NCBI GenBank assembly: GCA_965261055.1
Contig: OZ253440.1
Coordinates: 1,426,001-1,490,000, forward strand
Reading direction: 5' to 3'
DNA: 64,000 nucleotides
Source: G965261055 sp965261055 [NCBI: Fibrobacteria bacterium]
GTDB taxonomy: Bacteria > Fibrobacterota > Fibrobacteria > UBA11236
In this document: one piece after another, positions 24,306 to 26,906 of the stretch
How the letters are laid out: every line of letters starts with the position of its first letter
Position numbering within the stretch: the first letter of the stretch is position 1
Translations under genes and position numbers: made by a program
Notes under the pieces: model-generated
Told to the model about the DNA's origin: nothing
Databases searched by the model: none
The model's input: the letters and a program-made list of their open reading frames with translations, nothing else

Positions 24306-25377
24306 TTAGGATTGTAAAAGAAAAGATTTGATAAAAGAACCCATGTCTCCATCCATTACAGCTTTAATGTTAGATGTTTCAAAATTGGTTCTAAGGTCTT
24401 TTACCATATTATAGGGATGAAATACATAAGAGCGGATTTGACTTCCCCATTCAATATTTAGCTTTTCTTGAGCATTCTCCGTTTTAGATCTTTCTTTTTC
24501 TTGAATTTGGTGTTGGTAAACTTTGGAGGTAAGTACTTTTAGAGCATTTGAACGATTTTTGTGTTGACTTCGGTCTGATTGACAAGTAGAAACTATCCCT
24601 GTTGGAATATGAGTCATTCTTACTGCTGAATCTGTTTTGTTAACATGCTGTCCTCCAGCTCCAGAAGCTCGGTAGGTATCTACACGAATGTCTCTAGATT
24701 CTATTTCAAATTCTATGTCGTTTAAGACAGGGTAAACTTCAACGGCGGCGAAAGAAGTATGGCGACGAGAATTAGAATCAAAGGGTGAAATACGGATTAA
24801 ACGGTGGACACCAATTTCTGACTTTAAGTATCCATAAGCGTAGTCGTGTATAACCTCAAAACTAACACTTTTAATACCAGCCTGTTCGCCTGGTTCGTCA
24901 TTAATGATTTTAAAAGAAATATTGTTTCTTTCAAAATAACGCATATACATTCTCATTAGCATTTGAGCCCAATCGCAAGATTCAGTACCACCAGCTCCTG
25001 GGTGAATGTTTAGGATGGCAGGGCGTTCGTCGTTGACATTACTTAGCATTTTTTTGAATTCAAGATTTTTAATTTTAATTTCTAGTGTACGCTCAGTTTG
25101 TTTTAGTTCAGTTAAAAAATCCTCATCGGGATTTTCATTAGTGATTTCTACTAAAGAGCAGTATTCTATAAATTGTTGGTCAACTAAATTCCAATCACTA
25201 ATCCAAGTTCTTAGTATTTTGAGTTCTTTTTGAATAGAAGCCGCTTTTTTAGAGTCATTCCAAAAAGTAGAATTTTGGGTAATGATTGTTAGTCTTAGTA
25301 TATCTTTCTCTTTACCAGGTAAGTCAAAGATACTCCTTAAGTTGATCTAAACGATGTTGAAAAGCTTTAAGGGACAT
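24306..25377 (-). CDS. prfB: Peptide chain release factor 2, expressed by programmed +1 frameshift
   Basis: Terminates translation at TGA and TAA. The gene is split over two frames: 17 codons from the ATG at 25377 end in CTT TGA (TGA at 25324-25326). A +1 shift at CTT-T then continues LDLPGKEKDILRL and onward to the end at 24306, about 353 residues in all. The slip site is preceded by the Shine-Dalgarno-like AAGGAG two codons upstream, as in the classical RF2 autoregulation site. The downstream part contains HPGAGGTESCDWAQML, the peptidyl hydrolase motif region RASGAGGQHVNKTDSAVRM (GGQ), and a segment where SPF would stand for stop recognition (ISPFDSNSRRHTSFAAV). Low RF2 lets the ribosome pause at TGA and shift. 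Confidence 0.96.
25323..25338 (-). promoter_or_regulatory. Programmed +1 frameshift site of prfB
   Basis: On the minus strand the sequence reads AAGGAGTATCTTTGAC: an internal Shine-Dalgarno-like element, CTT as the slippery codon, in-frame TGA and a following C. It is nearly identical to the well-known RF2 site and sits at codon 17-18. Confidence 0.95.
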
Positions 25378-25384
25378 AAGGAAA

Positions 25385-26407
25385 TTATTGTTGGGGTTTA
25401 AATTTTAGAATCTGGCGTACTTCTTTACTTTTTCCTAGGCCTAATAAGTCAGCACAGAGAGAGCAGTAGGCAGAATCTTTATCAATACTAAATTCTTCAG
25501 AAGCAGGGTACACACAACATTTAATACAGATTGATTTACCAAGTAGAGGTTTTTTAAAAATGTGAGATCCTTCCAAATCTTTTTTTACATTAGCAATTAG
25601 TTCTTCAGGAGTTAATTGTTTTGTGACTGCATTAAGTCTTTCTTCTTTGTTACTTCCAATCATACAGACTATAGAAAGTTTATCGCCTTTTACAATTTGA
25701 CGATCGATTGTAGAAGGAACTTCTTTAAAAAATAATTGTGCAGCCTTAATAGTTGATAGTTCTTTAAAAGTAGCATTAGAATTTGTTTTTAGTTTTTTAG
25801 AGGCTTTAGAAGCCGTTTTTTTATCAGCTATTTTAGTTGTAGCCGTTTTTTTAGAGGCTTTAGAAGCCGTTTTTTTATCAGCTATTTTAGTTGTAGCCGT
25901 TTTTTTAGAGGCTTTAGAAGCCGTTTTTTTATCAGCTATTTTAGTTGTAGCCGTTTTTTTAGAGGCTTTAGAAGCCGTTTTTTTATCAGCTATTTTAGTT
26001 GTAGCCGTTTTTTTAGAGGCTTTAGAAGCCGTTTTTTTATCAGCTATTTTAGTTGTAGCCGTTTTTTTAGAGGCTTTAGAAGCCGTTTTTTTATCAGCTA
26101 TTTTAGTTGTAGCCGTTTTTTTAGAGGCTTTAGAAGCCGTTTTTTTATCAGCTATTTTAGTTGTAGCCGTTTTTTTAGAGGCTTTAGAAGCCGTTTTTTT
26201 ATCAGCTATTTTAGTTGTAGCCGTTTTTTTAGAGGCTTTAGAAGCCGTTTTTTTATCAGCTATTTTAGTTGTAGCCGTTTTTTTAGAGGCTTTAGAAGCC
26301 GTTTTTTTATCAGCTATTTTAGTTGTAGCCGTTTTTTTAGAGGCTTTAGAAGCCGTTTTTTTATCAGCTATTTTAGTTATTTTTTTTGGTTTTATTTTCT
26401 TCACCAT
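25385..26407 (-). CDS. Lys/Ala-rich tandem-repeat protein with four-cysteine C-terminal domain
   Basis: A 340-residue protein. After an 11-residue start (MVKKIKPKKIT) come ten full copies and one partial copy of an 18-residue unit, KIADKKTASKASKKTATT, with no visible amino-acid change. Basic, proline-poor repeats like these recall histone H1-like or AlgP-type nucleoid proteins. The 135-residue tail contains C-x-x-C (CIKC), 17 residues, then C-x-x-C (CSLC), a spacing shared with DksA/TraR zinc fingers, though the surrounding sequence does not clearly match them. I predict nucleic-acid binding and zinc binding, but no family is recognised. It lies 7 nt upstream of prfB on the same strand and 10 nt downstream of a cyclophilin gene. 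Confidence 0.85.
   Translation of the reverse strand: MVKKIKPKKITKIADKKTASKASKKTATTKIADKKTASKASKKTATTKIADKKTASKASKKTATTKIADKKTASKASKKTATTKIADKKTASKASKKTATTKIADKKTASKASKKTATTKIADKKTASKASKKTATTKIADKKTASKASKKTATTKIADKKTASKASKKTATTKIADKKTASKASKKTATTKIADKKTASKASKKLKTNSNATFKELSTIKAAQLFFKEVPSTIDRQIVKGDKLSIVCMIGSNKEERLNAVTKQLTPEELIANVKKDLEGSHIFKKPLLGKSICIKCCVYPASEEFSIDKDSAYCSLCADLLGLGKSKEVRQILKFKPQQ
25794..26374 (-). repeat. 54-bp tandem repeat array within a coding sequence
   Basis: Ten full and one partial copy of a 54-bp unit, apparently identical at the nucleotide level, encode the 18-residue repeats of the lysine-rich protein. The unit is a multiple of three, so copy-number change keeps the frame. 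Each unit also contains A7 runs on the coding strand. Array edges are approximate. Confidence 0.92.
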
Positions 26408-26417
26408 GAGGTCTTTC

Positions 26418-26906
26418 TTAGTTTGATGTAATGTTAATATATAAAATTGGATCGTCTTTTTCTAAGCGAGTCAGAACATCAAAACCAGAAATAATTTCCC
26501 CAAAAACAGTAGAGTTAATTAAATTAACTTCTTGTTGAGTATGTGTGATATAAAATTGATAACCTACAAATTGCTTCAAAGGAAGCATAGCAATTATTCC
26601 TGCAGATCTAGACTTTACAGTTGTTAGAGGAGTTGACTTTACAGCCTCTTTTAATGCGATAGAGTCTAATGTGGAGTTTTTTTCTGTTTTAGAAAAAAAG
26701 CCTTGAATAATTATTTTGAACACGGTCTGGTTGTAAAGATCTCTGTTACTAAAATCAATAAATCGTTTAACGGTGTTAGGAGCTCTTTTTGAGTCTAGTA
26801 AAATTTCAATTTTACCTTCATGTGTATGGATAGTTGCTTTTTGTTTCAGGTTCTCTTGTGCGAACATTTTCGAGAACAATAATAAAATAAGAAAGAAATA
26901 ATGCAT
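26418..26906 (-). CDS. Cyclophilin-like peptidyl-prolyl isomerase, divergent, secreted
   Basis: A 162-residue protein with a short signal peptide (MHYFFLILLLFSKMFAQ) and the cyclophilin fold pattern: ATIHTHEGKIEILLDSKRAPNTVKRFI is shortened here to its key G-K-I and A-P-x-T-V, then NQTVFKIIIQGFF, SAGIIAML, YQFYITHT and TVFGEIISGFDVL. The catalytic Arg of the usual F-H-R-V motif is absent (FKIIIQGF), and the QGGD segment is changed to QGFFSK, so isomerase activity is doubtful. It may act as a periplasmic chaperone. It lies 10 nt before the repeat-protein gene. Confidence 0.8.
   Translation of the reverse strand: MHYFFLILLLFSKMFAQENLKQKATIHTHEGKIEILLDSKRAPNTVKRFIDFSNRDLYNQTVFKIIIQGFFSKTEKNSTLDSIALKEAVKSTPLTTVKSRSAGIIAMLPLKQFVGYQFYITHTQQEVNLINSTVFGEIISGFDVLTRLEKDDPILYINITSN

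What the first reader, a model, noticed from the sequence alone, without database searches (positions are those of the whole stretch)
25385..26407. Protein built from ten identical 18-residue Lys/Ala repeats joined to a four-cysteine domain
Seen: ten full and one partial copy of a 54-bp unit with no visible nucleotide change, followed by a 135-residue domain with C-x-x-C, 17 residues, C-x-x-C. Identity of all copies means recent expansion or strong homogenisation. The unit length keeps the frame, so repeat number can vary among cells without loss of the C-terminal domain. Known: Lys/Ala repeat tails act in histone H1-like and AlgP-like nucleoid proteins, and the cysteine spacing is that of DksA/TraR zinc fingers. 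Inference: a nucleic-acid-binding regulator whose tail length, and therefore binding strength, is tuned by copy number. This combination of parts is not one I recognise.
Basis: partly seen in the sequence, partly recalled or inferred. Interest (0 to 1): 0.7.

Follow-up and report, generated by a model that had tools for sequence, protein, structure and literature searches.

The report
Lysine-rich repeat tail on zinc-ribbon protein
A gene whose protein has a long, positively charged tail made of identical repeats joined to a small, probably zinc-binding domain turns out to be an extreme member of a protein family spread through the Fibrobacter group of bacteria, most likely a DNA- or RNA-coating protein; the tail type is familiar, the family appears to be undescribed.

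Summary
In detail: a 340-residue minus-strand gene (25385-26407) carries a 54-bp unit in 10 full copies plus 46 bp, identical at every base, then a 135-residue domain with CxxC-17-CxxC. The window groups with Fibrobacterota. The window protein reaches no Pfam or NCBIfam cut-off, but a profile of the domain finds it in 117 of 167 Fibrobacterota genomes and, on reading, in none of 593 genomes of two other sets. Relatives also carry Lys/Ala-rich tails, with a cyclophilin gene directly upstream in 21 of 39 loci; the domain is under purifying selection. The perfect array is peculiar to the window: longest exact repeat 532 bp, against at most 59 bp in 47 homologue frames. DksA membership is not supported: the profile comparison is no better than to a control zinc ribbon, and most of these genomes have a DksA-type gene elsewhere. 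Best reading: an H1-like tail binds DNA, RNA or polyphosphate and tethers a new zinc-ribbon module. Length-variable H1-like tails are known (Hc2, AlgP). Whether copy number tunes function, or is assembled correctly, was not testable.

The parts
25385..26407 (-). Gene of the Lys/Ala-tail zinc-ribbon protein (340 aa)
   Evidence: ORF; C-terminal domain found in 117 of 167 Fibrobacterota genomes
25793..26378 (-). 54-bp tandem array, 10 full copies plus 46 bp, all identical; encodes the 18-residue unit TKIADKKTASKASKKTAT
25388..25792 (-). Conserved C-terminal domain (135 aa)
   Evidence: alignment A1; profile search; median dN/dS 0.074 over 183 dependent pairs of homologues
25454..25528 (-). Four-cysteine ribbon, C-x2-C-x17-C-x2-C, followed by the conserved stretch A..L.LG...E
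   Evidence: invariant columns of 21 rows; zinc binding is inferred from the four cysteines
26418..26906 (-). Cyclophilin-type peptidyl-prolyl isomerase, probably exported (hydrophobic N terminus, by eye), 10 bp upstream; the recurrent partner gene
   Evidence: PF00160, E 1.8e-18; such a gene directly upstream in 21 of 39 loci
24306..25377 (-). prfB (release factor 2), starting 7 bp after the stop of the tail gene, with the +1 frameshift motif CTTTGAC at 25329-25323
   Evidence: PF00472 and PF03462 for 24306-25049; motif and the two frames; prfB is also next to the ribbon end in G159 (L138)

Best explanation
The gene encodes a protein of a family found here only in Fibrobacterota, made of a strongly basic Lys/Ala tail (net +60) and a small C4 ribbon domain. 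The tail most likely coats or tethers to DNA, or to another polyanion such as RNA or polyphosphate, without sequence specificity, as H1-like tails do; the conserved ribbon most likely holds the specific partner. In the window's lineage the tail has been rebuilt by unequal recombination or replication slippage of one 54-bp unit, which keeps the frame and the C-terminal domain whatever the copy number. Shown: the array, the frame, family membership by homology, conservation of composition rather than of exact repeats, purifying selection on the domain, the recurrent cyclophilin neighbour. Inferred: disorder, zinc binding, binding of nucleic acid, tethering, the mechanism of expansion.
For: Profile A1 of the C-terminal domain matches 117 of 167 genomes of the Fibrobacterota set, 0 of 296 of the Bacteroidota set and 6 of 297 of a third set at E 3.6e-4 to 9e-3; of these six, five lie in biotin-synthase-like frames and one at the end of an exported-protein frame, none with a Lys/Ala tail (names by recognition). 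Homologue tails: median 223 aa, K 26%, A 24%, net charge +43 over 41 untruncated frames. C-domain dN/dS median 0.074 over 183 dependent pairs. Cyclophilin directly upstream in 21 of 39 loci, most of these with a lepA-like gene divergent (the one checked, in G159, is lepA). Tail length differs in 40 of 41 pairs with domain identity above 90%, including a clean 60-residue difference at 100% domain identity (L212/L214). Precedents: AlgP tail, DNA binding and repeat-number variation (PMC9239181, abstract and passages); Hc2 36-residue elements gained and lost in frame (PMC2848022, abstract and passages).
Against: No biochemical data. The single-sequence AlphaFold model has mean pLDDT 34 and is worthless, so the fold of the domain is unknown. 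The neighbours lepA, prfB and mnmE belong to translation and would fit an RNA- or ribosome-linked role as well. The window array has no proline and the whole tail one, unlike AlgP or most relatives (median 12%). Eight of 39 loci lack the cyclophilin. The acidic C-terminal extension of many relatives is missing from the window protein.
Confidence: 0.6

Rival explanations
1. A DksA/TraR-type regulator of RNA polymerase with an added basic tail.
For: Cysteine spacing CxxC-17-CxxC as in DksA (recalled); best PDB profile hit is 2kq9, named DnaK suppressor protein, E 0.0018, aligned over 83 profile positions and not the ribbon alone; DksA proteins in the same phylum also carry Lys/Ala tails.
Against: No DksA model among the 25 of 27 Pfam families listed for 21 members at E 1, while a tailed DksA of the phylum scores 55 bits; hhalign probability 9.1 against 11.3 for a control ribbon; a PF01258 match over the cut-off in 147 of 167 genomes; no DxxDxA motif (recalled) before the cysteines; two deep homologues have 14 and not 17 residues between the cysteine pairs (L232, L233, my count).
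Confidence: 0.1
2. An RNA- or ribosome-associated basic protein acting in translation.
For: Neighbours lepA (relatives), prfB and mnmE (window); Lys-rich extensions and small zinc ribbons are common in ribosome-associated proteins (recalled).
Against: The translation neighbours change (mnmE in the window stands where lepA does in relatives; prfB was looked for in 40 loci and found only in L138, by a search that drops overlapped frames); the most frequent neighbour is a cyclophilin with an apparent signal peptide.
Confidence: 0.2
3. The perfect array is wholly or partly an assembly artefact (wrong copy number); the gene itself is real.
For: A 586-bp exact array is hard to resolve with short reads (recalled); 7 of 50 distinct homologue frames run into a contig end (no control gene was counted); none of 47 homologue frames has such an array.
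Against: The frame stays open through 10.9 units with unique sequence on both sides, and the 340-aa frame is intact.
Confidence: 0.1

Closest known systems
AlgP / PhaF of Pseudomonas (H1-like KPAA tails)
   Same: Lys/Ala low-complexity tail of some 150-200 residues on a small folded domain; repeat number altered in clinical isolates (PMC9239181, abstract and passages)
   Different: AlgP tail is C-terminal and proline-rich with an N-terminal helical domain; here the tail is N-terminal, the window array has no proline, and the partner domain is a C4 ribbon
Hc2 (hctB) of Chlamydia and BpH1 of Bordetella
   Same: Basic repeat protein in which 36-residue elements (Hc2) are gained and lost without loss of frame (PMC2848022, abstract and passages)
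   Different: No zinc domain described there; Hc2 has 14 variants of its elements, here all copies are identical
DksA/TraR C4 zinc-finger family (PF01258)
   Same: C-x2-C-x17-C-x2-C spacing; Fibrobacterota DksA can also have a Lys/Ala N-terminal tail
   Different: No Pfam or profile support; most of the same genomes have a PF01258 match elsewhere
Zn_ribbon_9 family (PF02591) and CT398
   Same: C4 ribbon at the C terminus; CT398 (4ilo) is a PDB profile hit at E 0.026
   Different: No Lys/Ala tail in the C-terminal halves read; hhalign probability only 11.3

Membership tests
DksA/TraR (PF01258) | Score over the Pfam cut-off (24.9 bits) | tested here: not met
   No family for the window domain; PF01258 not among the 25 of 27 families listed for the 21 members at E 1
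DksA/TraR (PF01258) | C4 finger with CxxC-17-CxxC (recalled) | tested here: met
   Window and the 39 homologue frames; L232 and L233 have 14 residues instead
DksA/TraR (PF01258) | Profile similarity above that to another C4 ribbon | tested here: not met
   hhalign probability 9.1 for DksA, 11.3 for PF02591; both alignments rest on 5 rows
DksA/TraR (PF01258) | Coiled-coil hairpin with acidic tip DxxDxA (recalled) | tested here: inconclusive
   Motif absent by reading the residues before the first cysteine (sequence); fold not resolved
Bacterial H1-like proteins (Hc2, BpH1, AlgP type) | Long low-complexity basic Lys/Ala domain | tested here: met
   205 residues, net +60; K 33%, A 20% over a 225-residue span
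Bacterial H1-like proteins (Hc2, BpH1, AlgP type) | Match to a curated H1-like model | tested here: not met
   NF038053 (Burkholderia H1-like) at 7.2 bits, cut-off 80; no other H1-like model was listed
Bacterial H1-like proteins (Hc2, BpH1, AlgP type) | Binding to DNA | not testable with these tools
   Needs a binding assay
Fibrobacterota tail-ribbon family (defined here) | Domain homology, Lys/Ala-rich N-terminal tail, cyclophilin gene upstream | tested here: met
   Search from the window domain alone reaches E 2.7e-22; tail; cyclophilin upstream

The most novel reading that the evidence does not exclude
A phylum-level nucleoid (or polyphosphate) organiser, undescribed and nearly universal in one large part of Fibrobacterota, in which a new zinc-ribbon module is anchored by a fast-evolving H1-like tail whose length changes by whole in-frame units, so that cells of one population differ in tether length while the ribbon is held fixed. 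In the window lineage, 21 A7 tracts inside the array add a second possible switch: both other sense frames are closed within one unit, so a one-base slip would remove the ribbon.
Probability: 0.3. Interest if true: 0.65.

Novelty: new variant of a known kind. Interest (0 to 1): 0.45.

Why it matters
It names a conserved protein family for which I found no Pfam-A or NCBIfam model, with a recurrent gene neighbourhood and a wide spread in a phylum that includes the cellulose-degrading Fibrobacter. It gives a natural system for asking whether H1-like tail length matters, since the domain hardly changes while tails vary between close relatives. It also suggests that Lys/Ala tails were joined more than once to C4 modules in this phylum (this family and DksA).

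Tried and rejected
DksA membership: rejected after a control comparison. Structure: single-sequence prediction had mean pLDDT 34 and was not used; no fold search was run. Weak hits in the third genome set were read and proved unrelated. The window domain found no relative in genome contigs, viral contigs (and, with the profile, 73), plasmids or PDB by single sequence, and no PHROGs family. The exact repeat unit was not found in viral contigs. Weak family hits set aside: for the window, NCBIfam Cas10i (16.7 bits, cut-off 175) and Pfam Orexin_rec2 to the tail (11.3 bits, cut-off 25); among the 21 members, Cas10i in 3 (best E 0.0013), GTPase Era in 1 (E 0.00016), Rpr2 in 6 (best E 0.012) and MAM1 in 1 (E 0.0011); cut-offs of these member hits were not shown. 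Literature: the listings showed no paper on this family; they are capped (20 of 1,762 and 6 of 311 rows) and cover open-licence papers only, so absence from print is not shown.

Dropped rows: L109, L138 and L161 were left out of the tail table because the tail rule gave no tail; L160, a ribbon hit without the usual tail, and L104 and L107, whose starts the rule sets too late, are among the 41 untruncated frames. The first pair count (45 of 47) held repeated genes and L104/L107; the clean recount is 40 of 41. The dN/dS pairs include repeated loci of the same gene. The L1 tree used 21 of the 107 genomes with a match plus two outgroup rows.

Full report
Observation. The gene at 25385-26407 (-) encodes 340 residues. 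The tandem array at 25793-26378 has a 54-bp unit, 10.9 copies, 100% identity; ten copies match at 54/54 bases and the partial one at 46/46, giving ten exact copies of TKIADKKTASKASKKTAT. The tail is 205 residues with net charge +60, the C-terminal part 135 residues with net +6. Each of the two other sense frames has a stop in every unit, and 21 A7 tracts lie inside the array.

Where the window comes from. No whole genome is held for it. Ribosomal protein L1 of the window is at best about 60% identical to matches among 167 genomes of the phylum of a Fibrobacter MAG (107 of 167 matched). In a tree of 24 rows (the window, 21 of those matches, two outgroup rows) it falls with the 21 at 99/99, on a long branch. 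I therefore place it in or beside Fibrobacterota, without a close sequenced relative in the sets searched.

The C-terminal domain is a family. Single-sequence search of the same 167 genomes gave hits down to E 2.7e-22. A profile of 21 rows (A1) matched 117 of 167 genomes at E 0.001 or better; the positives are G001 and 116 of G047-G171, with none among G007-G046. The same profile matched 0 of 296 genomes of the Bacteroidota set and 6 of 297 of a third set, at E 3.6e-4 to 9e-3; on reading, five of these lie in biotin-synthase-like frames and one at the end of an exported-protein frame. Nine columns are invariant in the 21 rows: the four cysteines and A, L, L, G, E after the fourth. Pairwise dN/dS on the domain has a median of 0.074 over 183 dependent pairs with dS 0.05-1.2; some distant pairs reach 0.3-0.8. 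The window protein reaches no Pfam or NCBIfam cut-off; the other members give only scattered hits, the best E 0.0011 in Pfam and 0.00016 in NCBIfam, each in 1 of 21.

The tail. The homologues that I read carry basic Lys/Ala-rich N-terminal tails, including the deep ones from G047-G049, apart from the ribbon-only hits L160-L162. Over 41 untruncated frames the median tail is 223 residues with K 26%, A 24%, P 12% and net charge +43. What is conserved is composition and charge. The window is an outlier in repetitiveness: 86% of its tail 24-mers recur and the longest exact repeat is 532 bp, against at most 12% and 59 bp in 47 homologue frames. Among 35 distinct genes, 41 pairs have domain identity above 90% and 40 of these differ in tail length; L212 and L214 have identical domains and tails that differ by 60 residues at 99% identity. 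MAG assembly could contribute to such differences.

Neighbourhood. A cyclophilin gene (PF00160) lies 10 bp upstream in the window. In 39 fetched loci with a target frame (of 40; L138 fell below the threshold) it is directly upstream in 21. Of the other 18, six have no sequence upstream, three are ribbon hits without the usual tail (L160-L162), one (L163) has the cyclophilin overlapping the extended frame, and eight lack it, six of which have a lepA-like gene next to the tail gene. In G159 the gene appears to be split between two contigs, with lepA (TIGR01393 over cut-off), cyclophilin and a Lys-rich frame at the end of one, and the ribbon and prfB at the end of the other: the window's own order, except that mnmE stands where lepA would be.

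DksA. Against it: no PF01258 hit among the families listed, hhalign probability 9.1 for Fibrobacterota DksA and 11.3 for a control C4 ribbon, and a PF01258 match over the cut-off in 147 of 167 genomes. For it: the best PDB profile hit is the DksA-like 2kq9 at E 0.0018, with a LIM protein at 0.0027 and CT398 at 0.026. I conclude that it is a C4 ribbon of unassigned kind. Some DksA proteins of the phylum do bear Lys/Ala tails (L172, L178, L179, L180, L181), while L182 and L183 do not, so the tail-plus-finger plan probably arose more than once.

Mechanism. In AlgP a Lys/Ala/Pro tail binds DNA, is needed for the spacing of polyphosphate granules, and has altered repeat number in clinical isolates (PMC9239181, abstract and passages). 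In Hc2, 36-residue elements are duplicated and deleted in frame (PMC2848022, abstract and passages). By analogy the tail here is a non-specific polyanion-binding tether and the ribbon the specific part. This is inference; zinc binding, disorder and nucleic-acid binding were not tested.

Verdict. The feature is real and belongs to a widespread family for which I found no description in the libraries and listings searched. The perfect array is, in this sample, a state of the window's lineage alone; its copy number in nature is unknown. I rate it a new variant of a known kind.

Noticed in passing
window 24306-25377 (-), motif 25329-25323: prfB carries the RF2 +1 programmed frameshift motif CTTTGAC after an AGGAG stretch; its first frame starts 7 bp after the tail gene's stop.
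   Followed up: yes
L172, L178, L179, L180, L181: DksA/TraR proteins of several Fibrobacterota carry Lys/Ala-rich N-terminal tails of their own.
   Followed up: partly
L160, L161, L162: The ribbon module also occurs without the usual tail: in G164 and G165, and in G053 followed by about 190 residues without a Pfam match.
   Followed up: partly
genomes G007-G046 against the rest: Inverse distribution in a sample of 60 genomes: PF02591 at E 0.001 in 23 of 29 genomes of G007-G046, which lack the tail family, and in 3 of 31 of the others (my count).
   Followed up: no
window 25793-26378: 21 A7 tracts in the array; a one-base slip would close the frame within one unit and remove the ribbon.
   Followed up: partly
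L133, L135, L144-L147: Six loci lack the cyclophilin gene but keep a lepA-like gene divergent beside the tail gene.
   Followed up: no
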